A stretch of DNA of 64,000 nt from Nymphaea colorata (taxonomy: Eukaryota > Streptophyta > Magnoliopsida > Nymphaeales > Nymphaeaceae), in the NCBI RefSeq assembly GCF_008831285.2, contig NC_045144.1:12367155-12431154 (forward strand). Direction: 5' to 3'. This document shows, piece by piece, positions 353 to 54,914 of this stretch (positions within the stretch are counted from its first letter, which is position 1; each line of letters starts with the position of its first letter). The notes below the pieces were generated by a model. The model ran no database searches and was not told the origin of the DNA. It worked only from the letters and a program-made list of their open reading frames with translations. The translations under genes and the position numbers were made by a program.

Positions 353-354
353 AC

Positions 355-366
355 TGGTATCAGAGC
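355..366 (+). other. Primer binding site (initiator tRNA-Met type)
   Basis: TGGTATCAGAGC lies two bases after the LTR end. It is complementary to the 3' end of plant initiator tRNA-Met, the usual primer for chromoviruses and copia elements. Confidence 0.88.
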
Positions 367-448
367 CCAGATTCAGGTCAATCTGGGGAAGCGATTGGAG
401 AGTCGGTGTAGATCGTCGCGCCGACTTGCTACCGTTGAAGAAGGAGCC

Positions 449-21748: not shown

Positions 21749-21756
21749 CTTGTAAC

Positions 21757-22313
21757 CAATGTCACCTGGGTGCGTTTTTTTTTTAACCCGCACCCGTACC
21801 TACATCGAGGATTGACGGCGTCTTTCGATTTCGGCCGACACATTCTCCCTGAAAACTCTACCCGCCTAGTGAGCAATGCTGAGATTGAAAACTCTAAACC
21901 GCTCTTTGAGCGTTGCTCTTGCTGAAGAGCCGACTGTCCTTGGAGGAGATCTCCCGGTGCTGCAGCTTCTTGACACTGTTGACAATGCCGTCAGAATGGG
22001 GCCTCCTCTGGGCGAGGATCCGACGGCCGCTACAAGGGCTTGGGCGGACGGACACTTTTTTGCCGCCCATCACCACCTCGAAACCACTACTCGTTCTAAC
22101 ACCAAAGCTCAAGCACAAGCAGAAGGCTACCCTCCCCCTCCAGTGGTCCTCCTCCTTCTACCCCTCTAGCCCGCAGATCGATCGGAGTCGCTGGCCTTGG
22201 CGGCATCTCAGGTTCAATTGGGCGATAAAACCGTCAATATCGCTGCTGTTCCACATGAAACCCCACCTCCCTTTCTTCCTCCCTCAAAACCCGCACAAGT
22301 ACCCTACCTCGCT

Positions 22314-22350
<37 letters not shown>

Positions 22351-22676
22351 ATAGGGATTCGGTGTTCGCCCGAGCCGAATAGGAAGAATTGGGGAAGACA
22401 GAAGATGGTCGGCGGGGGAAGGTGGAGCGGGTAGAAGGAGGCGTCGGGGTTAACGGTGGGGTCAAGTTGTCAATGGTGATACTTAAGTGAATTTAAATGT
22501 TATTAGAATGTTGTATTAGATTTTTTATATTTTTATGGTAAATATTTTTTATAAGTTTTTAATATTTTTTATTGCTTATAATAAATTAATAATAATAATA
22601 AATAATCTCACCGCACTGCAATTTTTTGAAATGTGTCGCACCGAGCACCCCCGCACCTCACACATTGGTGACATAG
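21757..22676. mobile_element. Small DNA transposon, GTGCGG family, copy 1 (8-bp TSD CTTGTAAC)
   Basis: The 920-bp element is flanked by perfect 8-bp direct repeats CTTGTAAC (21749-21756 and 22677-22684). The left end is CAATGTCACCTGGGTGCG; the right end read inward on the - strand is CTATGTCACCAATGTGTG. Near the right end lie a GCCGCACC/GTGCGG-type array, an ATTTTTTGAAATGTGTCGCACC block and an (AAT)n stretch, all shared with the copies at 22.73 and 36.06 kb. The interior (about 21.83-22.45 kb) is GC-rich and gene-like. No transposase is present. The 8-bp duplication fits the hAT superfamily, and some Mutator elements make 8-bp duplications, but the end sequence is typical of neither. Confidence 0.82.
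21830..22460. pseudogene. Probable captured host-gene sequence inside copy 1 (source unknown)
   Basis: Base composition shifts abruptly from AT-rich flanks to GC-rich, codon-like sequence. Open stretches exist on both strands: + 21876-22169, + 22197-22382, and - 22118-21894, the last with GIVNSVKKLQHREISSKDSR then LFSKSNAQ. The - strand stretch looks like part of a real protein, but I cannot name the gene. A (TC)n tract at about 22316-22347 ends the region, as in many 5' leaders. It may hold pieces of more than one gene. No complete gene is present. Confidence 0.45.
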
Positions 22677-22727
22677 CTTGTAACAAGAAAAATAGCAAGG
22701 GCGATGTCGACAGGGACGAGCTGTACC

Positions 22728-23303
22728 CAATGTCACCTGGGTGCGTTTCCCAGGAGCTCGCACGGGTTCGGGTGCGGGTGCGCTCCAGGTGCGCACCCGA
22801 TGATGAGGCACACCCAAACCGCACTCAGGAGAGTTGGATCAAGTTTCGAGTCAAAACCAAATTAAAACCAAGTTCATTATGGTTTGGATCTGGATCTGAT
22901 TTCGAGATAAAACCAGATTAAAAATCCACAAAATCAAATCCCGATCGGCCGGGGCATCTAATTTAATACATCTATAGATGTATTATATGTTCTCTTTTCT
23001 CTTTCAAAAAAACGATACATGACTAAAAAATGGTGGCATGGTGGCTTTCATAAAATGATCTGTTTGCCTTTTTTCAAATATTTCTTTTTTGATTTTTTCC
23101 CATTATCATAAAAAATGTATAATTTTAATTGTGTTATTCAATTTTTACGAAAAATTAATAATAATAATAATAATAATATTAATATTAATAAAATATCTTC
23201 ACCATATCGCCGCACCTAATTTTTTTAAAATGTGCCGCACCGACACTTGCGACACCCGCACTGGTACCGGCACCCGGCACCCACACTCCGCATTGAGACA
23301 TAG
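22728..23303. mobile_element. Small DNA transposon, GTGCGG family, copy 2 (8-bp TSD GCTGTACC)
   Basis: The 576-bp element has perfect flanking repeats GCTGTACC (22720-22727 and 23304-23311). The left end CAATGTCACCTGGGTGCG is identical to copy 1 over 18 bases. The right end inward on the - strand is CTATGTCTCAATGCGG. GTGCGGGTGCG repeats lie at both ends, and an (AAT)n block at about 23155-23195 precedes the right-end array. The interior is AT-rich with no gene-like sequence. It lies only 51 bp from copy 1 in the same orientation. Confidence 0.85.
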
Positions 23304-23311
23304 GCTGTACC

Positions 23312-25279
23312 AGCAGCACCGTGCTTTCTAAAAAATAAGAGAGAGAGGGGGTTCTCCATTTTATTTTGTAAAAAAAAAACATGGTTATCTGGTGCGCTTT
23401 ACTGTGAGGGAAGGGAAGGGTGATGGCTTCCTTTCGTACATCAGGTTGAAAACTTTACACTAATGCCCCTTTAGCTGCCACCGATGAGCATCCAAGCGCC
23501 AACCTCCTTTCCTAATCAAACCCCAGACCCTTCCTATGGCTTCATGTCAAGGAAAAAATTGAGCTGCACGGAATTTAAGAAATGTTGGATGTTATGTCAT
23601 GCTCTGGTCATTTGGAAGATTTGGGCCTTCCGTAACCAGGCAGTCCATGATAATAAGTAAAAGAAAAGAACAACGATAACAAATTAAGGTAGAAAACGCG
23701 CAGTCAAAAAAAACAACCAAAAATCAAGTCTTAAACCAATCACAAAATTAGGCAAAATGGGTTTTGAAGATCATTAATCAGGAAAGCAATAGAACAAAAG
23801 ATGGAAGGGGAGGAGGATCAGTTCAAGGAAAAGGAGAATGGCGGGGAAGCCATTGTTGGGGTATCCCATGCGATTTAATAGAGGAGAAATCAACCATCAG
23901 CAGATGATCCATCATTTGTCGTTTGAGCACCCAAAAAGACGGTTGTCATCCAATAGAGAAAAAGAGCAAGAGATAAACAGAAGGAGAAAGACGCTCTCTA
24001 CTGCTAAGACGAGAGAAGAAAGTTGTTAAAGAACCTTCTTTCAGAAATTGGAAACCCTCAGCTGATTGTTTTTGAGCCCTTGCAACGAGTTGACAATGTT
24101 TCCTGTGGCAACTCAGGCAGCTCCACCGAGCGAGCTACAAGTTTGTGTTATGGCGGAAGAGAGAGGAACGCACAGTCAGCAAAACCCCTTTTCTGTGTGA
24201 GGGTTTCGACTTTGGAGCGAGAGAGTGGGAGGATTTAAGCGAGAGTAGTTTCAGCAAAATGGAACGCCTCGTTCTGGGGTGGCCATTTCACATACGAACG
24301 CAAAAATGTGTTCCTAAAGGACAGGGGAACTACTTGTCCTTCATGTTTTTTTTGGTCTGGTGTTTGGTGATGTTACATTTTTTCTGAGAACATTGTGTCC
24401 TTGGAACACAGAATGTCACTCAATCCAAACACCCTCGAAGTGTTTTAGCATGAAGAGCACATCTCCAATCAATTCCAGTGAAAATGCTTGAGAGGTCATT
24501 TTCTTAAGTTATGATTAAATTGTAAAAAGCTTTCATTTCCTTTGCCAACCAACACAGGTCCGCTTCAACCTTGGGTTGTTAGGATGGTAATGTTTGAATG
24601 CATCAATGTACTAGAAGGGGCATTTAGTAGTATGAACATTATATTAGTATTTTATAAATATGTATGAAAAATGAAAGTAGGTTCATGAAACACCAACATG
24701 GTATTTCTATAGCATTCCTATTACTAATGCCCTTAAAAGAATCAAGAAAGAGAGGACAAATGGGAGAGACTTGAAAGAGAGGACAAATGGGAGAGACTTG
24801 AAAGAAAGGACAAAATATAGGCAAATAATAAAAAAGTAAAGACAATAATGGGAAAAGGCCATCTGCTGCTTTCTGTACCATTGTCAACCTTCATAAGAGC
24901 TTATCTCGTAATGCAAACGTTTTTGGATGTGCTGGACGTGTGCGTAATATTTTGCATTTTAAGTTTGTATAGACTTTTTAAAATGGCATATGGGCACATC
25001 TCCTCCAATTTAGGTGATCATCAGTTGCTCATGACAGCTGTTTAACTAGTTCAATCTTAATATCACATTTCCATCAATCTAGATGATCATCAGTTGTTCA
25101 TAACAGTTGTTTAAACTAGTTTAGTCTTTTATATATATATATGTGATTGATAGTTACCAGACTGCTTAGGTAAGAGATGAAAACCAGATCTTTTAAATTT
25201 ATGTTAAAAAGTGTTTTAAACAAAATATGAACCTTTTAATGTATTTACAAACATTAATTTAATATAAATCATGCTTTAA
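23312..25279. other. Intergenic; short tandem repeat only
   Basis: No supported gene. Open stretches of 60-80 codons (23838-24387) have no domain or splice context. A 27-bp tandem repeat lies at 24746-24815. Confidence 0.5.
24746..24815. repeat. 27-bp tandem repeat, about 2.6 copies
   Basis: The unit GAAAGAGAGGACAAATGGGA plus GAGACTT occurs at 24746-24772 and 24773-24799, followed by a partial copy. Confidence 0.8.
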
Positions 25280-26455
25280 TTCGGGTGACTTTTTGTAAAA
25301 AAAAAAAAAAGATTGATCTTTATTGATGTTATAAGAGTCGTTCATTTTTAAAAAACATTATTTAAGTAAAAAAACAACTTAATACATGTTTCACATCAAA
25401 TCACTTTAAGATCATATTTATAAGGTTAAATTTCAAAAAAAAAAATTAATTTCAATACGTTTTGTGCTTGCGATACTTATAATTATGTTACCAAAGATTA
25501 TAGCAGTTTGTATTATGTCAATTTGACTATATGTATACATTTAGCATGATTTATTTTGAAACCTATTTTCTAACAAAAAGGTAATTCAACAATGTATGTA
25601 CGACGCGATTGGTCTCAAATGTCACTGCCCGGGTCACTAATAAAAGACAGATAAAATAGTCCGCTAGCTCCTGCTTAATTGGCGGACAGCTAGTTCACAT
25701 TATGTCCTGCCACATCTTTGCTACCTCACCACTGTCACCATCACCACCACCGTCAGGGTGATTCTCAAGGCCCTGCCCTACGCCGTGTTTGACCTAATAA
25801 ATTGTGTCCCCCCCCCCCCCCCCCCCGTTTCAACTCCGAATTAATGGACTTGAAACCACTTCAAACTTCATAGTCAATCCCTGTTTTAATTTATCATAGT
25901 TCAAGTCACTTTTTGTGAAAAAAAAAAGATTGATCTTTACCCTACCAAAATACTGATGTTATAAGAGCCGTTCATTTTTTTTACTATTAAAAACTTACAT
26001 GTTTCACATCAAATCACTCTGAGGATCATATTTATAAGGTTAAATTTCAAAAAAAAAAAAAAAATAATTTCAATACGTTTTGTGCTTGCAGTACTTATAA
26101 TTATGTTACGAAAGATTATAGCAGCTTGTATTATGTCAATTTGACTATATGTATACATCTAGAATGATTTATTTTAAAACCTATTTTCTAACAAACAAGG
26201 CGGACAGATAAAATAAAAGGCCATTTATGCAACCACACAGATAAAATAGTCCGCTAGCTCCTGCGTAATCGACGGACAGCTAGTTCACATTATGTCCTGC
26301 CTGATCTTTGCTACCTCGGCACTGTCACTATCACCACCAGGGTGATCCTCAAGGCCCTGCCCTACGCTGTGTTTGACCTAATAAATTGTGTTCGCCCCCG
26401 AAGTAATGGACTTGAAACCGCTTCGAACTTCAAAGTCAATCCCTGTTTTAATTTA
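25280..26455. repeat. Tandem duplication of a segment of about 0.6 kb
   Basis: Copy A (about 25280-25890) and copy B (about 25900-26455) share blocks in the same order: a poly(A) run then GATTGATCTTTA, TTTCACATCAAATCACT, TTGTGCTTGC, AGTCCGCTAGCTCCTGC, CACATTATGTCCTGCC, TTTGACCTAATAAATTGTG and AATGGACTTGAAACC. Copies differ by small indels and many substitutions. Copy A carries a 20-base C run (25808-25827) where copy B has five Cs. No coding capacity is evident. Confidence 0.85.
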
Positions 26456-27951
26456 CATAATAATATAAGGGCATTAGTTTGTTGGGATGGCCCCAATTGT
26501 TAGTTTGATTCTTATAGCCGTCAACTTTCTTGCATGAACTAAAACATAAGCGTCAACTTTCTTGCATGAACTAAAACATAAGCCCTAGAATAGTATGAGT
26601 TTTATAATTAATTTGATGTTGTCAAGTAAGGGACAATGTTTTAGGTGAGCTGAACAAGTATTTTTTTCATCCTATTAGTTAGAAAGAGAGCCAAAACGTT
26701 CACCCAACCCGCTGTCTCTTTAAAATAAAGGATCTACTTTTGGTTCTGCAAGGCGCCTCTTAGTCATGTGCCGCGGCAGCCTTCCTCCAACCCTTCTTTC
26801 TTTTACGATTTTTTTTTTTTTACCGTATAAGGAAGTTGATGTGTAGCCGCCACCTCGAACTTAATTTCCTTGCATCATAAATATAATAGGGGCAAACAAA
26901 GTGAGCCGATGAATCCAACGACGGCGAGTTTGAAGTCAGACGTGAACCATTTTGACCGCGCCAAAAAGCATTTGTCAAGGTCTACCAAGAGATTTTACGG
27001 GAGACTGAGGTGCTGTAGTCATATTTGACCGTGTAAAAGTAATTAGAGATGATGCCTTCCGCTACGAAAGTATATTCTTATAAGGAGGAAGGATGCGTGC
27101 CGCGAGCTGCCTTCGTATTCCATTAATGCCATAACATCTTCCACGTGATCCGGCTTTGTCATCTGTATCCAATCCCAACTAAAAAAGTTTCTACTTTGAA
27201 TTCCATCGACGAAGCCACCACTTTAGATTAGAGGGCCACGACTACTGTCCTCCGGTCATTAAGGGTGTTGTCATAATTAATTATTTAATTATACGCACCA
27301 GCGAGAAGGTGATAAATGATATGTTTGAATAAAATTTCTCAAAAAATTTTATGGGACCAACTACATTTTCAAATTTTTTGTCAGGGCAAAATTAGAATTT
27401 GGTAAAATTTTTATTTTCCAAAAGATTAGGAGGGCCATGTCCCCTGCCAAGCCCTCCTCCTTTTGGTAGAAGGCTAACCTCTTTTTCGATTTTCTTGGTT
27501 GTTAATTTTTTTATAGGCCAACACGGAAGTATAAACGAAAAAATTTAAAAAAAAAAAGGGTGGGGTGGGGAGGAAAGAGAGAGGTTTGATTGCCCTGATC
27601 TAAAATTCTCATGATTTGAAACCGTATATTTAAGATCAGAGCCCTCCCCCACTTTTATGTTAAATGAAAACTTTTATCAATATGAAAAGATAAAATGAGT
27701 GTTTCAAGTGTTGATATAAACCAAAGAATTACCATGTATTTCTTTCCACATTAACAAAAGTATGTCACATTAGATCCATTGGTTTTAAATCTAAAGGAAT
27801 CAAGCGCACCCTAAGAGTTTTGGCTTCATGCTTTGTACCGAATGTTCTGTTAACATGTCATTCTTAGTGGTAAGAATTTTACGGGTTGTATGGATGACGC
27901 TCACAAAACCTGGTATTGAAGGCAATTTGGCCTCTAAAACCTGGCTTTGGT
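26456..27951. other. Intergenic; one perfect 32-bp tandem duplication
   Basis: CGTCAACTTTCTTGCATGAA with its following 12 bases is duplicated exactly (26519-26550 and 26551-26582). No gene or further element is recognised. Confidence 0.55.
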
Positions 27952-28335
27952 GGTGTTTGGATGACATGAAAACTGGTTTCATGCAAACTCACTTTTCACA
28001 AAACATCCTTTTGATATGGTGATGAAAAACCTACTGTAACTAAGGGTGTTCAATTTGTTTAGACGGTAGGTACTGAAATTTATATTTAAGAATGCTCTTT
28101 TCCTTTTGCATTCAATAATCAGTTGAACTTGCTTGATTTTTTTTTTCTTTACAAGTATCATCAAAAAATCATTTTTTGTTATCCAAATAAAAACCAGGTT
28201 TTGAAAAAGTGAAAACCTGGTTTTTGCCTTGTCATCAAAACAGGGTAACCAGATTCTTAAAACCCAATAAAAAACCAAGTTTTAACAAACTAGGTTTCGT
28301 GAAATCTAAGTTTTCGAGGGTGTCATCCAAGCGCC
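27952..28335. mobile_element. Candidate MITE with 15-bp inverted ends
   Basis: The left end GGTGTTTGGATGACA and the right end, read inward on the - strand as GGCGCTTGGATGACA, match at 13 of 15 positions. The inner flanks are also loosely complementary (GAAAACT...TTTCA words). The 384-bp interior has no coding sequence. I could not find a convincing target duplication, so the superfamily is open. Confidence 0.45.
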
Positions 28336-28500
28336 TTCTTAAGATTTTCCTTTTAACGCTTATAAGGGCTTAAAGCGCCCCTTTGTTTCTTTTTCCTTGT
28401 CTCTCGGGGTGGGTAGCATTCGTAGAAATGAAAGTGAAGACCTGTTGTTAAGGCGCACCAAACTCACCAATCACGTTACCCCCACTTGAAGCGTAGTATT

Positions 28501-28950
28501 CAGGGGTGGGCATCGGGCCCGGCCCATCGGGCAGCTCAGCCTGGGTCTCTGCTCAGGCCCGGCCCACCATACCGACCACCTTTCCCCCTCCCGACCCCCT
28601 TTTCCCCTGCCCTCCCATTGGGTCCCCACCGACGGCCCACACGATGAACGACTGCAGGCGCAGCAACGGCAACAGAGGAGGAGGGGGACGGAGGAGGAGG
28701 GGGAGGGAGAGGGGGAGCAGAGAGGAGGAGCGGGAGCAGAGAGGGAGAGGGAGAGGGAGAGGGGGAGCGGGAGCGGAGAGGGAGAGTGGGAGCAGAGAGG
28801 AGGAGGGAGAGGGGGAGCGGGGGACGAAGGGCGGGAGTCGGGCTGGGCAGGGCCGCCGCCGGGCTGACGTATCGGGCCCGGGCCGGGCCAGGTTTTTCCC
28901 GGCCCAGACCTGGGTCCGACCGGGCCAGCCCGGCGGCGGCCCGGCCAGGC
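28501..28950. mobile_element. GC-rich non-autonomous element with 8-bp flanking repeats and a purine tract
   Basis: The sequence begins CAGGGGTGGGC, like many plant hAT termini, and is flanked by GTAGTATT (28493-28500) and TTAGTATT (28951-28958), 7 of 8 identical. GGGCCCGGCCC-type words occur near both ends in inverted arrangement, but the right terminus (CGGCCAGGC) is a poor inverted match to the left. The centre (28674-28830) is an almost pure G/A run. Long open frames on both strands here (28506-28967, 29020-28553) are composition artefacts. Confidence 0.55.
28674..28830 (+). repeat. G/A-rich minisatellite-like tract
   Basis: About 155 bp consist almost only of G and A on the + strand, built from GGAGGAGGG, GGGAGAGGG and GAGCGGGAGC words. 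Several GGGG/GGG runs could form G-quadruplex or triplex structures. Confidence 0.8.
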
Positions 28951-28958
28951 TTAGTATT

Positions 28959-29415
28959 CTTTGTTGAATATTAGGCAGGCACTTTTCCTTTTGTTCAAGG
29001 ACATATTTTGATTTGTGCAAGAGAAAAGAAAAAGGAAAAAGAAAAATGACAAATTTTTCACGCTTTCAATTTTGTCCTTATAAAAGAGTTGCTTTTTATT
29101 TTCCCCGTGTTAGTTAAGGGGCATTGCCCAACCTCCAGTGTTTCCATATCCACTTCAAATGCTCGAGGCCCACGTTGTCTGTAAGAACGCTCGTTTCTCA
29201 CCTGCCATTTACCAAACCAGCAGAACGTCATTGCTTGGACAGAACGATATTGACAGAACGATATTGATTGTGTTCTTATTTATTATCAGGGGCGATGGCT
29301 GGTGTGGGCACTGTATGGGCAATTGACCGCACTGGTTTATTCTCATATTGATATTTTAAGGTAAGTTTTTTTATTTTTACATTGTTGCTTCTTAAAATTT
29401 TAAAATTAAAGCCCT
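28959..29415. other. No recognised feature
   Basis: Short spacer between the GC-rich element and the three-LTR element. It has a 19-bp imperfect repeat (GACAGAACGATATTG twice near 29240-29265) and nothing else. Confidence 0.5.
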
Positions 29416-29420
29416 TTCAC
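29416..29420. other. Left target-site duplication TTCAC
   Basis: Identical to 32364-32368 at the other end of the three-LTR element. Confidence 0.8.
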
Positions 29421-30131
29421 TGTCACGGGCCGAGTTTCTCCAACCAGCGCGGCGCCGAAGGCGTTCCCCAAAGCCTTCGGCCAGCCTGACATCTCTTGCT
29501 TTAGCGAAAGCATTCATTTTTTCTTTGGGACTGTGGACTAGACGAGGAGGGTTAAGCACTCGGCACACCATCACCCAGGTTTATCCCATTGTCAGCCATC
29601 TTTAAGCCGTGGCCATGAGTCCTTGTCAGAACTTCTCCATTCTTCCAAGGCCTATCTACATCCAAACGAAATCTGGGTAGGGGTAGACTTCCCTTGAGAG
29701 GAAGTCCCCAGCCGAAGCCAATTGACGACTATATGTCATTAAGTAAGGCGGCCGACCATCGCCCTACTCGCCGATGAGCATTCACTTGCTCACCCCCGCG
29801 TGACTCTACGCGGTTGTGGAACGCAGCATATGCACCCACTGGGGGAATTGCCCCTAACCCACGTGCACCCCCCTATGTATCCAAACACTACGCGTGGGAA
29901 ACCCACTGGATTCCCCAACGATGGACTTGCACTTCCAAAGGGACCGCTGATCTTGATGCATTGAAACGCCTTGTCGTCGCACCACCGTGCTGCACATTCC
30001 ACGTGCATTGCTTTCTGCTAGACTCGGCGCGCGATTGAATCTCACATGCCTTCCAACTATGCTTAAGCTGCTGGCCAAGCAGCATCACCTTTTACTGGCT
30101 TGGTCGGGCCAGACACAGTCGGCAGGCAACA
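29421..30131 (-). repeat. LTR1 (3' LTR) of the three-LTR element
   Basis: The 711-bp LTR begins TGTCACGGGCCGAG and ends GGCAACA on the + strand (TGTTGCC...CCCGTGACA on the - strand). It matches LTR3 along its whole length. Open frames inside (e.g. 29814-30038) are not supported as genes. Confidence 0.88.
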
Positions 30132-30739
30132 TTCTCTCACCGCCAAAATCGTCACTGTCCTCAGTGACTCTGCCCCGAGCGATAGAAGTTCAGCTACCGT
30201 TCCCTTGATTTCTCTTGAACTCAGCCTTCATCCGTTCGTCTGGTTGACGCACCCGTCACGTCGCGGCTACTCGCCTATCGGGTGTTTTACCTCTAGTCAA
30301 TTCCTTAGCATCATCTCACTTTTCTATCACTGTTTGCACTTTTCCTTAGTAAAGTTCGGAACATCTCTGAAGACCACTAAATCTCAAATTTCCAAGCCGT
30401 GTTGCCAACCCGTGCACATGCTCCTTTCTCGGGACATGTCAACACTAAGGGCACTTGCCTTCTTGGACAATCATTTTCCACGTCGGGTCTCACCCTATCT
30501 GTCTCAGCGAGCGGCTCTCTTGGCCGTTCTGCTCCTGACGCCCAGACACCATCTTCGGAATGTATGATCTCCATCTGGCCAACACCAACGCGGTCACCTG
30601 AACCAGTGTCCGACGAACATGGCTGAACCCTTAGGGCACCAAACAAGCCAACATTTTTTTTTGAACCACTTGTTTGTTATCATCACAGCATTCTCATCTT
30701 TCAAGTTCCCTTCAAGAAATCGTATGCTCTGATACCACT
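30132..30739 (-). other. Internal region 1 of the three-LTR element, with primer binding site
   Basis: 608 bp without coding motifs. The primer binding site is at 30726-30737 (TGGTATCAGAGC on the - strand), two bases from LTR2. A purine-rich GGTGAGAGAA on the - strand at the left edge is the likely polypurine tract. Confidence 0.75.
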
Positions 30740-31210
30740 TGTCACGAGCCGAGTTTCTCCAGTCCGCGCGGCGCCGAAGGCGTTCCCCAAAGCCTTCGGC
30801 CAGCCTGACATCTCTTGCTTTAGCGGAAGCATTCATCTTTTCTTCGGGACTGTGGACTAGACGAGGAGTGCTAAGCACTCGGCACACCATCACCCAGGTT
30901 TATCTCATTGTCGGCCATCAGCAAGCCGTGGCCATGAGGTCCTGTCAGAACTTCGCCATTCCTCCAACTGCCTATCTACATCCAAACGAAATCTGAGTGG
31001 GGGTAGACTTCCCTTGGGAGGAAGTCCCCAGCCGAAGCCAGTTGATGACTATATGTCATTAAGTAAGGCGGCTGACCATCGTCCTACTCGACGATGAGCA
31101 TTCACTTGCTCACCCCTGCGTGACTCTACGCGGTTGTAGAACGCAGCGTATGTGCCCACTGGGGGAATTGCCCCTAACCCACGCGCACCCTCTTGTATAT
31201 CCAAACACTA
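30740..31210 (-). repeat. LTR2, truncated
   Basis: Matches the first 470 bp of LTR1 and then jumps after CCAAACACTA into internal sequence homologous to about 30296. About 240 bp of LTR and 165 bp of internal sequence are missing. Both parents carry CTA at the junction. Confidence 0.85.
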
Positions 31211-31654
31211 GTCCATTCCTTAGCATCATCTCACTTTTCTATCACTGTTTGCACTTTTCTTTAGTAAAGTCTGGAACATCTCCGACGACCACTAAATCTC
31301 AAATTTCTAAGCCGTGTTGCCAACCCGTGCACATGCTTCTTTCTCGAGACATGTCAACACTAAGGGCACTTGCCCTCTTGGACAATTCTTTTCCACGTCG
31401 GGTCTCACCCTATCTGTCTCAGCGAGTGGCTCTCTTGGCCCTTCTGCTCCTGACGCTCAGACACCATCTTCGGAACGTGTGATCTCCATCTGGCCAACAC
31501 CAATGCGGTCACCTGAACCAGTGTCTGACGAACATGCCTGAACCCTTAGGGCACCAAACAAGCCAACATTTTTCGTTGAACCACTTGTTTGTTATCATCG
31601 CAACGTTCTCATCTTTCAAGTTCCCTTCGAGAAATCGTCTGCTCTAATACCACT
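31211..31654 (-). other. Internal region 2 (shortened), with primer binding site
   Basis: Closely matches 30296-30739 (CATTCCTTAGCATCATCTC onward). The primer binding site is at 31641-31652 (TGGTATTAGAGC on the - strand), two bases from LTR3. Confidence 0.8.
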
Positions 31655-32363
31655 TGTCACGGGCCGAGTTTCTCTAGCCCGCGTGGCGCCGAAGGCGTTC
31701 CCCAAAGCCTTCGGCCAGCCTGACATCTCTTGCTTTAGCAGAAGCATTCATATTTTCTTCGGGACTGTGGACTAGACGAGGAGTGCTAAGCACTCGGCAC
31801 TCCATCACCCAGGTTTATCCCATTGTCGGCCATCGGCAAGCCGTGGCCATGAGGCACTATCAGAACTTCACCATTCTTCCAAGTGCCTATCTACATCCAA
31901 ACGAAATCTGGGTGGGGGTAGACTTCCCTTGGAAGGAAGTCCCCAGCCGAAGCTAGTTGACGACTATATGTCATTAAGTAAGGCGGCCGACCATCGCCCT
32001 ACTCGACGATGAGCATTCACTTGCTCACCCCCGCGTGACTCTACGCGGTTGTGGAACGCAGCATATGCGTCCACTGGGGGAATTGCCCCTAACCCTTGCG
32101 CACCCCCCTGTGTATCCAAACACTACGCGTGGGGAACCCACTGGATTCCCCAACAACGGACTTGCACTTCCAAAGGGATCGCTGATCTTGATGCATTGAA
32201 ACACCTTGTCGTCACACCACCGCGCTGTACATTCCACGTGCATTGCTTTCTGCTAGACTCGGCGCGCGATTGAATCTCACATGCCTTCCAACTATGCCTA
32301 AGTTGGCCAAGCAGCATCATCTTTTACTGGCTTGGCCGGGCAAGACACAGCCGGCCCGCAACA
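31655..32363 (-). repeat. LTR3 (5' LTR) of the three-LTR element
   Basis: The 709-bp LTR runs from TGTCACGGGCCGAG to CCCGCAACA on the + strand and is followed by TTCAC. Confidence 0.88.
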
Positions 32364-32368
32364 TTCAC

Positions 32369-33323
32369 CCTGTTTATTATTATTTGAGAACTGCTCCTGT
32401 TCGAAAGGACGGACTGGAAACTCCAATCAACCATATTCTTGTCTACAAAAAAGCATAACAATGGATTCTAATTGTTTTTTCAATTACGCAAACACAATAT
32501 GAACAATATGAGGAAATCTAAGAACGGTCTTAAAAGTTTAATTTTTTCTAAGTGCAGCCTTATAAATAAGATTTATAAAGGTATAAAAATCATGGATACT
32601 GTAGCTTTCCGCAATTATATGTAAATCATTATTTATAGCTTTTATGTTGTAAGTCATATGGCTAAATTTTAGCAAAAACTCTGGCAGATCTCATTCACTA
32701 TCGACTCTCCAATAAAGGCATAATCAAGGGTGACTTTTTTTTCTGAAAAGTAATTTAAGATATCCCCAAAGAGAAAAGAATTTGGAAATAGCCGATAAGT
32801 TAAGAGGGCTTCGCTATAATTACCGGAAAAAATTACATTCTCTCTAGTTTAAGTAGAAGCAACGGCAAAGCCTGATTTAGTCCGACGCGTGCTCGACTTT
32901 TTGTCCAATACTTGTTCCGGCACCCAACACTTACAAAGGCCAATATCCACGGATCGGTGTTCAAATCCTATGACTCGTGCTATGCTCCGGTGCCTACTCC
33001 TCTTTGGCCTGCAAATATTGAAAAATATGACACTTGAGAATGAGAATGGTATATCTTAGGTCTATCCAGCACCTGAAGAAAGTTAGAGCATCTAAGCATT
33101 AAGGCTATGGCCTTGGAGGTTTTAAGCTCAAAACGGTATCCCTGAAGCAAACATTTAAAAATGAATCAAATCTCAATTCCATGCATGTATTAGTTTAGAA
33201 TTGTTATTAACTAAAGCCAGGTCTCATTTTTTATAGTTGAATACAAAACAAAATTTCGTGAGATATTGTTTATATTTACGTATATCATCCTAAAAATGTA
33301 GTTATGATAAAGCAAACATAGAC
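32369..33323. other. No recognised feature
   Basis: AT-rich spacer between the three-LTR element and the CACTA transposon. No coding signal. Confidence 0.5.
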
Positions 33324-33326
33324 TTG

Positions 33327-33660
33327 CACCACAAAAAACCGATGAATTACCGACGGCCAAAAAATGTCGGTGAAACATGGCCATCCCTTAGCCACGCATT
33401 GATCATTAATGAAAAAGTGCCCGTAAAAATCATCACTGACATATCTTAATTGCACATCAATGCGCCAAACACGTAGGTAAATATAGATTATTGCCGACAT
33501 CCATGTGTGTCGGTAATAGAACCTTTTATCGACAATCCCCTGGATGTCGGTAAAACTTCATATCAACAGTGGTCTTAGATGTTGGTAAAACGTTTTGCCA
33601 AAATTTGTTTGGACATCGATAAAACTTTAACCGACGTTCAACAAACGTCGCTATGACTCT
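33327..33660. repeat. Left CACTA terminus and subterminal repeats
   Basis: Dispersed direct and inverted units of (T)TACCGAC / GTCGGTAA(AA) type, for example at 33350-33375, 33493-33515, 33547-33555 and 33630-33650, in varying states of decay. Confidence 0.75.
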
Positions 33661-33834
33661 TTATCGATGCAATTTTATGTGTCTGTGAAAGTATTTTAAT
33701 TTTTTTTTAATCCGCATAAGACATACAAATAATTAATATGTTTAATCTTTATCGATGCAATTTTATGTGTCTATGAAAGTATTTTAATTTTTTTTAATCC
33801 GCATAAGACATATAAATAATTAATATGCTTACAT
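33659..33834. repeat. 88-bp tandem duplication near the left CACTA end
   Basis: CTTTATCGATGCAATTTTAT and the following bases to TTAATATG occur twice with a period of 88 bp and only a few differences. Confidence 0.8.
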
Positions 33835-34059
33835 ATTCCATATATCAAACGAAACAGTTAAATGTTCATAAACTAAACAATTATATATAGCAAATGTTCA
33901 AACTTATATTACAAGACAACTGATTCACTACGGTTCAAAGTTACAAAAACATGAACATATATTGCTTCCACAGTAATGTCATTGTCAAGGTGGAAATCAT
34001 GTAAAGTTTGGTTGTGTCGCTATGTCTATAATGAACATTAAGAAAACATGTTAAGACTA

Positions 34060-34258
34060 TCAGAAATAAAGTTTAACAAATAGTACTCATTACATAAAAT
34101 TAAATGTTACACAATTTGTATCACTAAGTTGTTGTACCATAAATTGAGAAACTTGAACTTGAAATTTTTGGAATTACTGCTGAGATTGAAGAAACTGAGA
34201 CTTAAGCACAGAAACTTTATCCTTCAGTAATGCATTTTCTTCTCGCATGGTATGTATG
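34060..34258 (-). pseudogene. Possible C-terminal coiled coil of a CACTA TNPA-like protein
   Basis: The - strand reads MREENALLKDKVSVLKSQFL from 34248, then QSQQ, a stop, and FQKFQVQVSQFMVQQL. The heptad-like leucines and Gln-rich tail are common at the C-terminus of plant Ptta/En/Spm transposase-associated proteins. No other part of that protein was recognised, so this is a position-supported guess. Confidence 0.35.
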
Positions 34259-34299
34259 ACGCTCAAATTAAAGGACAATATGAATGAACAAAGACTGAC

Positions 34300-34881
34300 A
34301 CCAAACCTCATCATTCGTACTCAATCATGTCTCTCCTGTCCCATTATTGGGAGTAGACGCCATTACTTTCTAGTGTATCTTGTGGCCCTTCAAGCATTGT
34401 TTAGAATTGTTATTTTACTTGATCCTATAATATATGATAACATATATCATGAAGAATGTAATTATTTGAGTATATAATAACATATATCTTGTTCAGATAT
34501 AAGAATGTAATTGTTTGAATGAGACTTACAATCACACTGTTGGTTTCAGGGTTTGAATAGTTTGTGTTCTTACTTATCATAATAGCAATTACCAAACCTC
34601 ATCATTCGTACTCAATCATGTCTCTCCTGTCTCATTATTGGGAGTAGACGCCATTACTTTCTAGTGTATCTTGTGGCCCTTCAGGCATCGTTTAGAATTG
34701 TTATTTTACTTGATCCTATAATATATGATAACATATATCATGAAGAATGTAATTATTTGAGTATATGATAACATATATCTTGTTCAAATATAAGAATGTA
34801 ATTGTTTGAATGAGACTTACAATCACATTATTGGTTTCAGGGTTTGAGTAGTTCGTGTTCTTACTTATCATAATGACAATG
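34300..34881. repeat. 291-bp tandem duplication inside the CACTA element
   Basis: 34300-34590 and 34591-34881 are near identical (start CCAAACCTCATCATTCGTAC, end TCATAATAGCAATT versus TCATAATGACAATG). The few substitutions suggest a fairly recent duplication. Confidence 0.88.
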
Positions 34882-36047
34882 AATAGCTCATTACATGATG
34901 GCTACTCAGAACTTTCTCCAAACTATATATTGCAATACAAGATATCAATACTATGTGCAGTCATATAATATATAAACACACATAACACATGCATCCTTCT
35001 CCTTAAAAGGAGCAAAACTCTATGTGCCAGTTGTATGAAAATACTTCTATTTAGCATGCACTTGTGCAGATTTTTTTACTAATTTCTTGAAACATGAAAG
35101 CATCTTAATGTATGAAATATGTATAATTTTTTCTATACAACGTTGCCTTTATATTACAAACCCATTAATATACAAATATCGTATGCATACTTTTGACTTA
35201 TCTATATGCATTGTTTGGTAATCAATCTCAAGTGTTGCTTTTAACACACACAAAATGGATGTAATAACATCATAATATATTATATAAATAATGTATCATA
35301 CATATGTGAAGTTCAGAATGTTCTTACATACTATGTGATAGAACAACCTTGTGATTAAATAATATGAACATATTTACTTTTAATAAGTCTATGGTTACTA
35401 ATTCTAATGCGCCTAATTGACACTTTATTCTCTCTACACTAGATTCATATTTTAGATTAATAATAATGCCTTTGGCATTCCTTTCAAGTCTATTCATTCT
35501 TAATTCTATATCCTAGCAATACGTTGAGTAAAATGTCATACATTCATATGCCAAATAATCTATTGCAATTGATTATTCTGGTTGACTTTTACTATGTACA
35601 TACATCTTTAACTTAAATAAGTACATGATACAAACATAAAGTAATAGTGTGAAGACAAAAATTACTCTCGTTAACAACTTCTTTGTAATAAAATTAAACC
35701 AAAAAACATATCTCTCAAATGGATACATTCACTTGTATTGCACTAATCCACCCAACCAAATTTCATTTGCTAAATGAATTATCAAATTACACAATCACAT
35801 CGAAAAAAGTTGGTTGAAATATCATTTCTAATTGACAAAGTGTCATGCTAATTTTCCATTCTAATTTTGATAACTCAGCATCCGTTATGGCCTTCATACA
35901 AATTTTTTGAAAAACTCACAATAGTTTATCAACACGAGACCAACCTTTGTGGGTAGAGATCTCCTTAAAGCCAAATGAAGCATTGTTTTAAGAGTATGTG
36001 AGAGTCATGACTCTTCAGATTGGAGATCTTGTGTCACTCACAACAAC
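34882..36047. other. AT-rich interior of the CACTA element, nothing recognised
   Basis: No open frame of note and no motif on either strand. Confidence 0.5.
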
Positions 36048-36055
36048 TTTGTGTG

Positions 36056-37078
36056 CTATGTCACCAGAATGCGGGGTGCGGGTGCCGGTGCGGATGCGGA
36101 TGCGGGTGCCGGTGCGATACATCTCAAAAAATCACGGTGCGGCGGTGCGGCAAGAGTATTTATTATTATTATTAATTTATTATTAATATTATATATTAAT
36201 AATATCAAATTTGATATTATTAATGCACCCTATTGAAGTGCATCTAGTGCTGAATATCGTAAGTCCTGCAATTCTTTTGCAAAAACATAGATTTTGGTTA
36301 GTGGTGCCAATGTGTTGGCTTCTTCCATTAGCTGGGGAATGGGCTGTAGGGCTGTGTCACTTGGGTCAGAAGCACAAACACGTTAAGACTATTAAAGTCT
36401 AAAACAGGGAGCAGGAGCAGCGTATCCAGTTTTAATTTATGTGTAGTTCGTGAAACGCGACGGCTACCACCTGTTGATTAGGCTACCACGTGTACGCCAC
36501 AGCTCCCATCTTCCAACAGCGAGAGGCAGTTCACAGACACCAAGAGGGGAAGAGAGAGGAGAAGGCAAGCGAAGAAGAGACGCAGGCAGGAGAGGGAAGT
36601 CATGGCCCTCGGCGACGGGAAGGAGTTCAAGCTTGTGGCCCTGTGGGCTTCAAGAACTTCGTCCGCCCTGATCGGACCGGTTCACCGTCAAGCGGTTCCA
36701 CCATGTCGAGTTCTGGTGCGGCGACACATCCACCACCGCCGCCCGCTTCTCCTGGGGACTTGGCATGAGCCCTATCACCCGCTCCGACCTCTCCACCGGC
36801 AACCCATTCTTTGCCTCCACCGTCCTTCATTCTGGCAACCTCGTTTTCGCCTTCACCGCCTTACTCCCTCACCATCTCTGCGGACGCCGCCTCCCCCTGC
36901 TCCCTCCCTTCCTTCTCTGCCACCGCGCTATCTGCTTCCTCGCTTCCCACGGCTCCACCCTATTATTCTATTAGGGTGCGGGTTGGGTGCGAATCTGGGT
37001 CGCACCCGTACCCGCACCAGCACCCGCGTCGTTTCGACGCGGGTGCGTCACCAGCGCTGCCGCACCCTGCTGACATAG
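36056..37078. mobile_element. Small DNA transposon, GTGCGG family, copy 3 with captured HPPD (8-bp TSD TTTGTGTG)
   Basis: The 1023-bp element is flanked by perfect TTTGTGTG (36048-36055 and 37079-37086). The left end is CTATGTCACCAGAATGCGG; the right end inward on the - strand is CTATGTCAGCAGGGTGCGG. The left end corresponds to the right ends of copies 1 and 2: GTGCGGGTGCCGGTGCG array, ATACATCTCAAAAAATCACG, GGTGCGGCGGTGCGG, then (TTA)n. The copy is therefore inverted relative to them. The right end has an array of the same words plus a short palindrome (ACCCGCGTCGTTTCGACGCGGGT). The GC-rich interior carries a host-gene fragment. It inserted into the CACTA element. Confidence 0.88.
36602..36960 (+). 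pseudogene. HPPD: Captured fragment of 4-hydroxyphenylpyruvate dioxygenase (N-terminal part)
   Basis: Read in shifting frames, the + strand gives KEFKLV, GFKNFVRP, then FTVKRFHHVEFWCGD, ARFSWGLGM, SDLSTGN and, further on, a 'SHG' end. These follow in order the start of plant HPPD, the tyrosine-catabolism/plastoquinone and tocopherol pathway enzyme. The piece corresponds to roughly the first 110-120 conserved residues. An 8-bp insertion after KEFKLV, a shift near 36680 and another near 36852 break the frame, and the C-terminal iron-binding half is absent, so it cannot make the enzyme. The upstream 36440-36600 (with CCACGTGT and AGAGAGG words) may be captured promoter/leader. The family assignment is by recognition of conserved blocks. 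Confidence 0.78.
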
Positions 37079-37086
37079 TTTGTGTG

Positions 37087-45890: not shown

Positions 45891-47050
45891 AGTTATGCGT
45901 CGTCCTCGGCGCCAGCAGTTTCATGATAGGCCTTGACTTCCAGCGGGTAGCGCTGCTTCATGCGGAATGCATACTCGTGGGGTTGTGTTCGCCTATCCAC
46001 TTCACTTGGTACTTCTTCGGCTCCCCCAAATAGTTTGTCTTGTGCCGAAGAATCTCTTCCATCTGACGGTCCGCCGCTCGCTTGGTCGGCGGGGCTCGCT
46101 GCAGGATCGGGTCTCGTTCTGGAACACTTCGCTCGGGGTCTTCCTCATTGACATAGAAGGGCTTCAGGTTACAAACATGGAACACTGAATGCACCTTAAA
46201 GTCTGGCGGCAAGTCTAGCTTGTAGGCTAGCTTTTCGATTCTCTTCAGCACTGTGAAGGGTCCCTCATACTTGCGGATCAATGACCTGTGTCGACCACGG
46301 AAAATGCTCGTGCGATCAGGATAGAGCTTTACGAGGACTTGATCACCCACTCGGAATTCCATTGGCCGTCGATTCCGATCTGCAAACTTTTTCATCTTTT
46401 TGGCGGCCTTGTGTAAGAACGCCTTAGCCATATCCGTCTGTTCCTGCCAATCGCGAACGAACTGGTAGGCAAAAGTGGGTCTTCCCTTTTCTTGGGCTGC
46501 AAGGGTATGCGGCATCAACGGTTGTTATCCAGTGGCTATTTCAAATGGACTATGTCCAGAAGACTCGCTCTTCTGCAAATTGTAGCAAAATTGAGCTACA
46601 TCCAACAATTTCACCCAATCTTTTTGATTCGCACTGACATAGTGTCGAAGGTATTGTTCCAACAATTCGTTGATTCGTTCAGTTTGGCCGTCCGTTTGAG
46701 GGTGGAAACTTGTTGAGAATAATAAATCCGAACCCCAACAAACGAAATACTTCACGCCAAAATTTCTCTGTGAAGCGAGCGTCCCGATCACTGAAAATGC
46801 TTTTCGGCACGCCCCAATGCTTGACAATATGCTTCACGAACAACTCGGCCGTCTTTTCCGCGGGACATTCTTTAGAGGCTGGGATGAAGGTGGCGTACTT
46901 TGAAAATCTATCCACAACCACAAGGATGGAGCTGAAGCCGTCAACTTTGGGCAAGCTGACGATGAAGTCCATGGAGAGGCCTTCCCACGAACGTTCTGGA
47001 ATAGGAAGAGGCTACAGGAGACCAGCAAGCTTCTGGTTTGTTCCCTTGTC
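45891..47050 (-). pseudogene. Integrase core and chromodomain of chromovirus B (broken)
   Basis: The core begins with SMDFIVSLPKVDGFSSILVV (about 46.98-46.92 kb, first catalytic Asp). It continues with [19 protein letters not shown] (second Asp) and, after a +1 frameshift near 46735, with [13 protein letters not shown] and its Glu-containing neighbourhood. A TAA replaces a Gln codon just after EIATG (near 46523). The C-terminal part has the GPF/Y-like VRKYEGPFTVL-type block and then KKYQVKWIGEHNPT. A 4-bp deletion relative to element A removes the Trp of the chromodomain and shifts the frame to a stop at 45958; the old frame would end near 45895. Confidence 0.88.
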
Positions 47051-48394
47051 CTGCTGACAGATCAAACATGTTTTCACATATGTTTCAACGTCGTCGCGCA
47101 TCTGTGGCCAGTAGTAGCCACGTTCGAGCAGTGCCAGTGTCCGCTCCTGGCCAGGATGGCCAGCCCACAATGAGTCATGACACTCCTTCAGCAACTCTCG
47201 TCGGAGATTGCCCCATCTAGGCACGAACACTCGTCCGCCCTTTGCCATCAAAAGTCCAACTTGTAGCCAGAATTGACGCGTCTTTCCCGCCTCTATTGTT
47301 TCGACCAAGTGCTTGGCCACTGGGTCCTGCTTCATGCCTTCTCGAATCTGCCCGAGAAGAGCACCCTCGAGTTGCGCTTCGGATGATGTTGTCCGGGTAG
47401 ATGCCAACTCCGCCTTTCGACTCAGTGCATCGGCTACGACGTTTGTCTTCCATGCCTTGTATTCCAATGCAAAATCGAATTCTGCAAGGAATTCCTGCCA
47501 TCGAGCTTGCTTCGGACTCAACTTCTTTTGAGTCTGGAAGTAGCTTGTAGCTACACTATCAGTCTTTACCACGAATTGGGACCCCAACAAGTAATGCCTC
47601 CATGTCCGAAGACAATGAATAATGGCCGTCATTTCCCTTTCTTGCACGGAGTACCGTCGCTTTGCGTCTTTCAGCTTCCGACTCTCATAGGCAACTGGAT
47701 GACCTTCCTGCATCAAAACTCCGCCAATGGCAAAATCTGATGCATCCGTGTGGACTTCAAATTTCATTGTGTGGTCGGGCAACCTGAGCACAAGCTCCTG
47801 CGTCAGGGCCCTCTTCAACTTGTCGAAGGCATCTTCTTCGAGCTCTTCCCAAGCCCAAGTTCGGTTTTTCTTTAACAAATCAGTGAGAGGCGCAGTTATC
47901 AAAGAATACCCATCAATGAATCGTCGATAGTAATTTGCCAAACCGAGAAAAGAACGTTGTTCTGGTACATTGGTTGGCGGTTTCCAGTCTTGAATTGCCC
48001 TCACCTTTTCTGTGTCCATTCGCAGCTGACCTTTTCCCACAATGTGACCGAGAAAACTAATTTCCGATTGGCTGAATAGGCACTTCTCGCGCTTCACATG
48101 GAGTTCGTTTTCCTCCAATACCTTGAACACTATTCGCAAGTGTTCCACATGGTCCCTCATGGAGCTACTGTACACTACAATGTCATCAAGATAGAGTACC
48201 ACGAACTTATCTAAGTACGGATAAAATATCTTATTCATTAGAGTCGAAAAAATGGCTGGGGCATTCGTCAATCCGAACGGCATTACCAAGAATTCAAAGG
48301 CACCGTAACGAGTGACGCAAGTGGTCTTTGGCTCGTCGCCATCAACAATTCGAACTTGCCAATATCCTGATCTGAGGTCTAACTTGGAAAACAC
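47012..48394 (-). pseudogene. pol: RT, RNase H and integrase zinc finger of chromovirus B
   Basis: A 460-codon open stretch. RT has [28 protein letters not shown] and [10 protein letters not shown] (catalytic YLDD at 48193-48182). RNase H has [14 protein letters not shown] and TDSVATSYF. The integrase N-terminal HHCC finger has [11 protein letters not shown] and [10 protein letters not shown]. It is bounded by a TAA at 48410-48412 and a TAG at 47012-47014, both where the family pattern calls for Gln. Internally all catalytic signatures are visible. Confidence 0.92.
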
Positions 48395-48409
48395 TTGAGC
48401 TTTGCCTAG

Positions 48410-50071
48410 TTAATCAAACAGATCTGCAATCAAAGGTAAGGGGTACTTGTTCTTCACCGTTACCTTGTTCAACGCTCGATAATCCACACATAGCCTTTTG
48501 GAGCCGTCATGCTTCGCTTGGAATAACACTGGTGCACCAAAAGGAGCTTTGGAGGGTCTGATTATACCTCCAACTAGCATCTCGTCCAACTGTCGCCAAA
48601 GTTCTCTTAATTTTGCAAGAGCCATTCGATATGGTGCCATTACCGGAGGTTTGGCACCAGGAAGAAGTTCGATGGCATGATCCACCTCACGTCGAGGTGG
48701 CAGCCGTCTAGGGAGCTCCGCAGGCATTGTTCCTGCGAATTCCGCTAAGACAGGTGCAAGCGCCTCTGGGACCAAACCAGGGGAGTCATTAGTCACTTCC
48801 CTGATTGCCACCAAGTACGTCTCTTCGCCATGCTTGAGGCCTTTCTTCAACTGAAGGGCAGATATCATTGCGGCTTTACCCTTATCCCTCTTTATCGATG
48901 TTACTGGAACCATACAAGGGGACTTCTCATCCATGATACTAATACTGCGTAGGTGCGGCATTGGGACCATTTTCTCAGTACTGAGGAGCTCCATGCCTAG
49001 GATCATCCGGAAATCATCCATCGGGACCACCGAGAAGTTGGCCCTTCTTGACCAACTTTCAATCTTCACAACCGCATCCCGAGCCACTCCGTGGATGGGT
49101 TTGGCCTCTGAGTTCACCGCCTTCATGCGTAACTCTCCCCTCTCAAGGGTTAGGCCTAGTCTCCTCGCCTCCTCAACTGAAACAAAGTTATGTGTGGCTC
49201 CCGTGTCTACCATAGCCAGGGTAGACCTTCCATTTACCAGGATTTCCAAGTACATGAGGTCGTTAGAAGGTGTCGCTGTCACCTTCACTTTTTCCTCCAT
49301 TTTTATGGTGTTCAGAAGTTGAAGTGCACCCATCTTTGGTCCTTCACCTTCTTCACCTTGTACCGCATTAGCAGATTGCCTTGAAGAGCTTGCTTGATTG
49401 TCCCTGTTTACACGCTTTGGACATTGCCTTCCTAAGTGATTGCCATCACAAAACCAACATTTCAACACTCTATTTTGAGAGTTGTCGTTTCTGCGAAAGA
49501 AAGTTCTTCTTTCGACTTGGCGCTGAGTTGATGATTCATCTTTCTGTTCCCTTCGATCATCTTTCTTTCCTCCATGGTCAGGCTTCCTCGACGGCTTGAA
49601 GGCGTTAGTGTAGCTCTTGCGCTGAGTATCAGCCAAACGTTCTGCTACCACATAAGCATCCTCCAAGGTCTCCGGATTACTCATTTCCACTTCGGATTGT
49701 GCCCACGACTGAAGTCTCAAAATAAACCAGTTCAATTTATCTTGTTCTTGCATATCTGGCACATCTAACAACAGCCTTTGATAGGCCCTCACGTAATCTC
49801 GCAAGGATCTGGTATGTTTCAATTCACCAACCATCCGATAGGCATGACGTGTCGCATTCGGGGGCATAAAGTAAGTTCTTAATTCTCGCTGCAAATCATC
49901 GAAAGTGTCTATTATGCAGATCCTCTTTTGAATGTCGAGCATTTTCCTTCTCCACCATGCCACAGCATCGCCCTCTAGCAACATAACCGCACTCTTAACT
50001 TGAAGGTCGTCCCCCATAATGCCTTGCAAGTCGAAGTAATACTCCACTTGGAATAAAAAGTTGTCGATCAC
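48410..50071 (-). pseudogene. gag-pro: Gag C-terminal half, protease and RT start of chromovirus B
   Basis: A 553-codon stretch. The Gag core reads [15 protein letters not shown] and [11 protein letters not shown]. The zinc knuckle is [13 protein letters not shown]. Retropepsin has [16 protein letters not shown] with the DTG triad intact (contrast DTR in element A), about 49.2 kb. The end is the RT entry region ([40 protein letters not shown]). In one frame it would join the upstream Gag start and the downstream RT; TAA codons at 50159-50161 and 48410-48412 separate them. Confidence 0.92.

Positions 50072-54847: not shown

Positions 54848-54914
<67 letters not shown>

What the first reader, a model, noticed from the sequence alone, without database searches (positions are those of the whole stretch)
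21749..37086. A small DNA-transposon family with C(A/T)ATGTC ends, GTGCGG subterminal arrays and perfect 8-bp target duplications
Three copies (21757-22676, 22728-23303, 36056-37078) share a terminal C(A/T)ATGTC motif, GTGCGG/GTGCGGGTGC arrays next to the ends, a conserved ATTTTTTGARATGTRTCGCACC block and an (ATT)n run on the CTATG side. Each has a different, perfect 8-bp flanking duplication, so the boundaries are exact. The 8-bp length fits hAT, and 8-9 bp fits some Mutator elements, but ends starting CAATG/CTATG with GTGCGG arrays match neither family as I know them. The arrays may be transposase-binding sites, as AAACGG repeats are in Ac. Two of three copies carry gene-like GC-rich cargo.
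Basis: partly seen in the sequence, partly recalled or inferred. Interest (0 to 1): 0.88.

Follow-up and report, generated by a model that had tools for sequence, protein, structure and literature searches.

The report
Gene-capturing hAT transposons in water lily
The three marked segments are real, precisely bounded, non-self-sufficient jumping genes of a plant (a blue water lily by all signs), most likely a new family of the well-known hAT type, two of which have picked up foreign pieces, one of them from an ordinary host gene.

Summary
In detail: three elements (920, 576 and 1023 bp) with exact ends and perfect, different 8-bp target duplications; 0 such pairs in 100 shuffles. The host is inferred to be Nymphaea colorata. 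Genome-wide, 35 of 46 CAATG-type left ends pair with a right end and a perfect 8-bp duplication. Two corrections. First, CTATG is the commoner terminus and can occur at both ends, as in window copy 3; CAATG is a left-end variant. Second, the family is most likely hAT: 37 duplications fit the hAT target pattern nTnnnnAn (T2 28/37, A7 20/37), and a candidate 4.4-kb long copy encodes a hAT dimerisation domain (PF05699, E 2.7e-14). The ends of that long copy were located by searches but not read, so the link is inferred. Copies 1 and 3 look like gene-capture (Pack-type) elements: copy 3 carries a broken N-terminal fragment of 4-hydroxyphenylpyruvate dioxygenase (E 1.3e-21); copy 1 carries 558 bp that match one other place over the whole length, at 91%. 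Verdict: a new family of a known kind. Its TIR second base (T) departs from the hAT end rule as I recall it.

The parts
21757..22676 (+). Copy 1: 920-bp non-autonomous element, CAATGTCACC...GGTGACATAG
   Evidence: (as L015)
21749..21756 (.). Left target duplication of copy 1, CTTGTAAC
22677..22684 (.). Right target duplication of copy 1, CTTGTAAC
21894..22451 (+). Foreign piece in copy 1: 558 bp matching one other place over the whole length (C10:24649335-24649876, 91%); the left element sequence of the query does not match there; donor gene not named
   Evidence: searches gave no usable protein name
22728..23303 (+). Copy 2: 576-bp MITE without recognised cargo, member of the ~585-bp subfamily (7.9% from the consensus of 20 copies)
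   Evidence: (as L016)
22720..22727 (.). Left target duplication of copy 2, GCTGTACC
23304..23311 (.). Right target duplication of copy 2, GCTGTACC
36056..37078 (-). Copy 3: 1023-bp Pack-type element, CTATG at both ends, AT-rich (ATT) side at the low-coordinate end
36048..36055 (.). Left target duplication of copy 3, TTTGTGTG
37079..37086 (.). Right target duplication of copy 3, TTTGTGTG
36414..36953 (+). Foreign piece in copy 3: matches C14:12372817-12373389 at 84%. Inside it, 36672-36890 encodes an N-terminal piece of 4-hydroxyphenylpyruvate dioxygenase (HPPD); the frame is broken around it
36300..36397 (+). Second foreign-looking piece in copy 3; matches four places on C11 (80-94%) that match nothing else of the query
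22617..22676 (+). Right terminal region of copy 1 with the AATTTTTTGAAATGTGTCGCACC block and GCACC repeats
36056..36150 (-). ATT-side terminal region of copy 3: GGTGCGGGTGC array plus block (CGATACATCTCAAAAAAT read on +)

Best explanation
The three segments are non-autonomous members (one MITE, two Pack-type gene-capture elements) of a hAT transposon family in the water lily Nymphaea colorata. SHOWN: exact ends, TIR C[T/A]ATGTCACC, perfect 8-bp duplications with the nTnnnnAn preference, end-restricted GGTGC/GTGCGG arrays (one orientation on the ATT side, mixed on the other), many CTATG ends in the genome (704 match rows, several per end), and cargo matching other genomic places. INFERRED: a hAT transposase encoded by a rare longer copy (candidate C2:9889684 to about 9894072, about 4.4 kb, whose 132-aa exon carries PF05699) binds the subterminal arrays, pairs the ends, excises the element and inserts it into an 8-bp staggered cut. 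Copies 1 and 3 arose when host DNA was enclosed between two such ends and then moved as one unit; the cargo of copy 3 recurs at 97% beside another family end, so it moved or was copied after capture.
For: 27 exact 18-mer ends, 0 in the reversed control: 22 pair with a GACATAG end and a perfect 8-bp duplication, 2 with one mismatch, 3 unpaired. 19 further left ends (controls 3): 12 perfect, 1 one-mismatch, 1 (L030) perfect with a variant right end, 5 unpaired. TSD pattern over 37 perfect duplications: T2 28, A7 20, both 18; binomial p for both about 6.5e-10 with window base frequencies; the Buster-type nnnTAnnn (recalled as such) only 1 of 37. nTnnnnAn is the target pattern of the hAT element Hermes in passages of PMC2803484 and PMC10368747. 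Hermes, Tag1, Ac and Tol2 need or bind subterminal repeats (passages of PMC3143072 and PMC10368747). Candidate long copy: an end of the kind seen on ATT sides at C2:9889684+, a left-type match at C2:9893935-9894065- (78% to positions 8-154 of the L012 left end); the 901 bp read between them hold PF05699 at 53.2 bits, cut-off 21.4, in the expected orientation. Gene capture: HPPD E 1.3e-21; donor-like matches; the whole queried part of copy 3 again on C8 at 97%, 232 bp inside a family end.
Against: The CTATG terminus has T at base 2, while hAT ends as I recall them are YARNG (A at base 2). Of the 150 hAT genes listed (of 1113 first-look candidates) the only ones within 15 kb on the inner side of any of 135 ends lie beyond two short complete elements. 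Three hAT genes with open frames of 657-699 aa have no family TIR pair with an 8-bp repeat in the 5.2 kb read around each, only lone 7-base end words. No convergent pair (under 20 kb) among the 135 exact ends is longer than 874 bp. Position 6 of the duplications is also A-rich (21/37), which the hAT pattern does not predict. Pfam found nothing in the HPPD-like piece. The TSD scans looked for 8-bp repeats only.
Confidence: 0.85

Rival explanations
1. The family is hAT-like, but the 4.4-kb C2 segment is not its autonomous member: a hAT gene of another family lies by chance between two family ends, and the true helper is elsewhere or lost.
For: Neither end of the segment was read; the left match is only 78% over positions 8-154; no TSD checked.
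Against: With 1113 loose hAT candidates in 408 Mb, a random 4.4-kb stretch holds one about 1% of the time (my arithmetic). The coding strand and the distance of the last exons from the ATT-type end fit an autonomous hAT.
Confidence: 0.18
2. A Mutator-like (MULE) or other superfamily with 8-bp duplications (for instance P or KDZ).
For: CTATG ends are unusual for hAT (recalled); Pack-type capture is best known from MULEs (recalled).
Against: The 37 perfect 8-bp duplications show the nTnnnnAn signature (selected for 8-bp repeats, other lengths not scanned); hAT domain in the candidate long copy. No search for a MULE, P or KDZ transposase was made.
Confidence: 0.04
3. A categorically new superfamily.
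For: End sequence not found for any named family in the one text search made for it (15 of 301 papers listed, none about transposons by title).
Against: Target signature and hAT domain as above.
Confidence: 0.01
4. The cargo is not captured host DNA but old internal transposon sequence that host loci later shared.
For: Some cargo hits lie close to other family ends (C10:12306133, C10:2952859), so part of the sequence does travel with the family. For the C14 match no end sequence was in the query, so whether it is a gene or another element was not tested.
Against: HPPD is a host metabolic enzyme (function is general knowledge), and the C10:24649335 match of copy 1 lacks the left element sequence that was in the query.
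Confidence: 0.07

Closest known systems
hAT superfamily, Ac/hobo/Hermes-type target choice
   Same: 8-bp duplications with nTnnnnAn, short TIRs, many subterminal repeats; PF05699 in the candidate long copy
   Different: TIR CTATGTCACC has T at base 2 on most ends; GGTGC/GTGCGG arrays as subterminal repeats; group within hAT not determined by a tree
Tag1 of Arabidopsis (hAT)
   Same: As recalled it also begins CAATG; distinct short subterminal motifs at its two ends with different affinity for the transposase (R-TGACCC and L-AAACCC: passage of PMC3143072)
   Different: Different subterminal motif, longer TIR (recalled), no sequence relation shown here
Pack-hAT elements of maize and rice (PMC8903248)
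   Same: Non-autonomous elements with 8-nt TSDs carrying host gene pieces; neighbouring same-family insertions mostly in the same orientation (copies 1 and 2 are 51 bp apart and co-oriented)
   Different: Different ends, different host; the main text has 0 occurrences of Nymphaea or Amborella (passages read)
hAT MITEs such as mar of Drosophila (PMC3517528, search listing only)
   Same: Short, non-coding hAT derivatives with inverted ends
   Different: Unrelated host; sequence not compared

Membership tests
hAT superfamily | 8-bp target-site duplication | tested here: met
   35 of 46 CAATG left ends pair with a right end and a perfect 8-bp repeat (one duplicate copy, L011, included), 3 more with one mismatch, 8 not paired
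hAT superfamily | Target preference nTnnnnAn (Hermes/Ac type) | tested here: met
   T2 28/37, A7 20/37, both 18/37; pattern from PMC2803484 and PMC10368747
hAT superfamily | Transposase with hAT C-terminal dimerisation region (PF05699) | tested here: inconclusive
   Present between two family ends 4.4 kb apart, but the ends were not read and no TSD was seen
hAT superfamily | RNase-H-like catalytic core with DDE residues | not tested
   Only 901 bp of the long copy could be read
hAT superfamily | Short TIR starting YARNG (recalled) | tested here: inconclusive
   CAATG ends fit; the commoner CTATG ends break base 2
Pack-TYPE transposon | Host coding DNA inside a TIR element with a TSD, no transposase of its own | tested here: met
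   HPPD piece in copy 3; for copy 1 a 558-bp foreign piece of unnamed coding status
Pack-TYPE transposon | Intact donor gene at another locus | tested here: inconclusive
   C14:12372817-12373389 and C10:24649335-24649876 match the cargo but were not read
MITE | Short, non-coding, homogeneous, multicopy | tested here: met
   20 copies of 555-597 bp at 1.2-7.9% from their consensus
Mutator-like (MULE) | 8-11 bp (mostly 9) TSD and usually long TIRs (recalled) | tested here: inconclusive
   8-bp repeats, only that length scanned; TIR identity about 10-12 bp, short for a typical MULE
Mutator-like (MULE) | MULE transposase | not tested
   No MULE family search was run

The most novel reading that the evidence does not exclude
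In this early-diverging flowering plant, one hAT family with re-coded termini (CTATGTCACC, base 2 = T, with a drifting CAATG left end) acts as a recurrent exon and promoter shuttle: two independent captures lie within 15 kb, and one chimeric HPPD-bearing capture has been amplified to several loci.
Probability: 0.35. Interest if true: 0.45.

Novelty: new member of a known kind. Interest (0 to 1): 0.3.

Why it matters
It gives an exactly bounded, apparently recent hAT family in Nymphaea, a lineage that split early from other flowering plants, with a candidate helper copy and gene-capture products. Its base-2 variation at the termini (CTATG/CTATG and CAATG/CTATG copies both moved) is a natural test of which terminal bases a hAT transposase needs.

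Tried and rejected
Rejected: (1) the idea that every copy needs one A-end and one T-end. The early copies showed CAATG/CTATG only because the search pattern demanded CAATG; L051, L052 and window copy 3 have CTATG at both ends. In L037, L030 and L031 the ATT block sits on the CAATG side. (2) L012 as a long copy: no GACAT[AT]G right end in 10 kb. (3) Three hAT genes with long open frames (L048-L050) as helpers: no family TIR pair with an 8-bp repeat; lone 7-base end words occur. (4) Naming the donor of copy 1: no Pfam, PDB (best E 0.26) or protein hit (the protein search only weighs candidates of 0.55-1.75 times the query length, so a full-length parent could be missed). (5) Literature for the end sequence: the 15 papers listed of 301 are unrelated by title; N. 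colorata + hAT + transposon gave one paper, on Anthurium.

Dropped before the TSD count: L011 (duplicate of L010), three one-mismatch cases (L014, L020, L036), and L012, L023, L027, L031, L034, L039, L042, L046. L023 and L027 are complete elements with non-matching flanks; L039 has a right end with two mismatches in the flank and L046 a right end with an unrelated flank.
Full report
What is there. The window holds three transposon copies at 21757-22676, 22728-23303 and 36056-37078, with flanking repeats CTTGTAAC, GCTGTACC and TTTGTGTG. A mechanical scan finds exactly these three in the window and none in 100 order-2 Markov shuffles. Copies 1 and 2 have CAATG at the left end and CTATG at the right; copy 3 lies in the opposite orientation and has CTATG at both ends.

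Host. The window is G000:C7:12367155-12431154 of a 407.8-Mb assembly in 783 contigs. A kinase gene in the window has N. colorata paralogues on a contig of 24319297 bp, the exact length of G000:C11. The published N. colorata genome is 409 Mb in 804 scaffolds, 770 of them on 14 pseudo-chromosomes (passages of PMC7015852). So the host is inferred to be Nymphaea colorata.

The family genome-wide. Of these, 22 have a GACATAG right end with a perfect 8-bp duplication, 2 with one mismatch and 3 none. A looser pattern adds 19 left ends (46 in all, controls 3): 12 perfect, 1 one-mismatch, 1 perfect with a variant right end (L030), 5 unpaired. Paired sizes run from 80 bp (one-mismatch repeat) to 1128 bp. 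Twenty copies of 555-597 bp form a MITE subfamily, 1.2-7.9% from their consensus. CTATGTCACC ends followed by TGCGG give 704 rows (several rows per end, only the first 100 listed, controls 4); two stricter forms give 53 and 36 places, controls 0. Two CTATG/CTATG copies were read and both have perfect duplications (L051, L052). CTATG is therefore taken as the common terminus and CAATG as a left-end variant; the apparent A/T asymmetry came from the search pattern.

Superfamily. Over 37 perfect duplications, T is at position 2 in 28, A at position 7 in 20, both in 18 (binomial p about 6.5e-10 with window base frequencies; the two positions were chosen beforehand from the recalled hAT pattern); nnnTAnnn occurs once; position 6 is also A-rich at 21/37. 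nTnnnnAn is the Hermes (hAT) target pattern (passages). The GGTGC/GTGCG motifs are confined to the ends: 12.5, 0.1 and 8.2 per 100 bp for left, middle and right of 33 elements; read inward, GGTGC against GCACC is 189 to 2 on the right end and 124 to 132 on the left. Passages of PMC3143072 and PMC10368747 say that hAT transposases bind or need such subterminal repeats; binding was not tested here.

Helper copy. Of the 150 hAT genes listed (of 1113 loose candidates), the only ones within 15 kb on the inner side of an end lie beyond two short complete elements, and the nine convergent pairs among 135 exact ends are 222-874 bp. Three hAT genes with open frames of 657-699 aa show no family TIR pair with an 8-bp repeat in 5.2 kb. 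A search with the 220-bp left region of L012 gave 49 matches from 40 scored of 134 first-look candidates. One, C2:9893935-9894065 on the minus strand, faces an end of the ATT-side kind at C2:9889684, 4.4 kb away. The 901 bp read between them hold a 132-aa exon with PF05699, E 2.7e-14, 53.2 bits against a cut-off of 21.4. In the protein database 34 of 35 candidates passed E 0.001, the best 53% identical; the named ones are plant proteins, one from Nymphaea thermarum. By the density of hAT candidates a random 4.4-kb stretch would hold one about 1% of the time (my arithmetic).

Cargo. Copy 3 carries, at 36672-36890, a piece matching 4-hydroxyphenylpyruvate dioxygenases (26 PDB sequences at E up to 0.01, best 1.3e-21); Pfam gave nothing. 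The reading frame is broken around it. The DNA 36300-36975 has 10 matches: itself; C8 at 97% (a family end lies 232 bp before it); C9 at 92%; C14:12372817-12373389 at 84% over 36414-36953, the likely donor gene (not read; the query held no element ends, so an element copy is not excluded); two C10 places next to family ends; and four C11 places matching only 36300-36397. Copy 1's 21894-22451 matches C10:24649335-24649876 at 91% and, for its first 105-107 bp only, two C4 places; the left element sequence of the query matches other places instead. These are marks of gene capture, as in the Pack-hAT elements of PMC8903248 (passages). Copies 1 and 2 lie 51 bp apart in the same orientation, which fits the local-insertion model in that paper.

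Mechanism. Shown: ends, duplications, target pattern, end-restricted arrays, multicopy spread, foreign cargo. Inferred: a hAT transposase from a longer copy binds the arrays, excises and inserts elements with an 8-bp stagger; cargo was enclosed when two ends were mobilised together or during repair of an excision gap.

Novelty. A new family of a known superfamily with known kinds of derivatives (MITE, Pack-type). I found no named match, but Repbase and the N. colorata repeat library could not be searched. The T at base 2 of the terminus is the one feature a specialist might find unusual; the rule it departs from is recalled.

Noticed in passing
window 230-1876 and 45958-50071: Ty3-type retrotransposon remains: gag/capsid with a weak protease match at the left, and gag-protease, reverse transcriptase/RNase H and integrase pieces on the minus strand at the right.
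   Followed up: no
window 51944-58123: Wall-associated/LRK10L-like receptor kinase gene; the kinase part is 97% identical to a Nymphaea thermarum protein.
   Followed up: partly
C8:7163290-7164197, C9:3655416-3656066: Further copies of the HPPD-bearing element or cargo, 97% and 92% identical to copy 3; the capture was probably amplified.
   Followed up: partly
L010/L011 and L046/L047: Pairs of elements with the same left target word at places 318 kb and 66 kb apart, suggesting segmental (or assembly) duplication rather than separate insertions; in L046 the right flank differs.
   Followed up: partly
L036 (about C4:6614897-6614976, minus strand): An 80-bp element made of little more than the two ends, with a one-mismatch 8-bp duplication: close to the minimum a transposase could still have moved.
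   Followed up: no
L037, L030, L031: The ATT/GARATGT block sits on the CAATG side instead of the CTATG side, so base 2 of the terminus is not tied to one subterminal end.
   Followed up: partly
G000 genome: hAT genes are abundant: 1113 first-look PF05699 candidates, with groups of equal-scoring matches with long open frames (three of 657 aa and three of 699 aa), hinting at other recently active hAT families.
   Followed up: no
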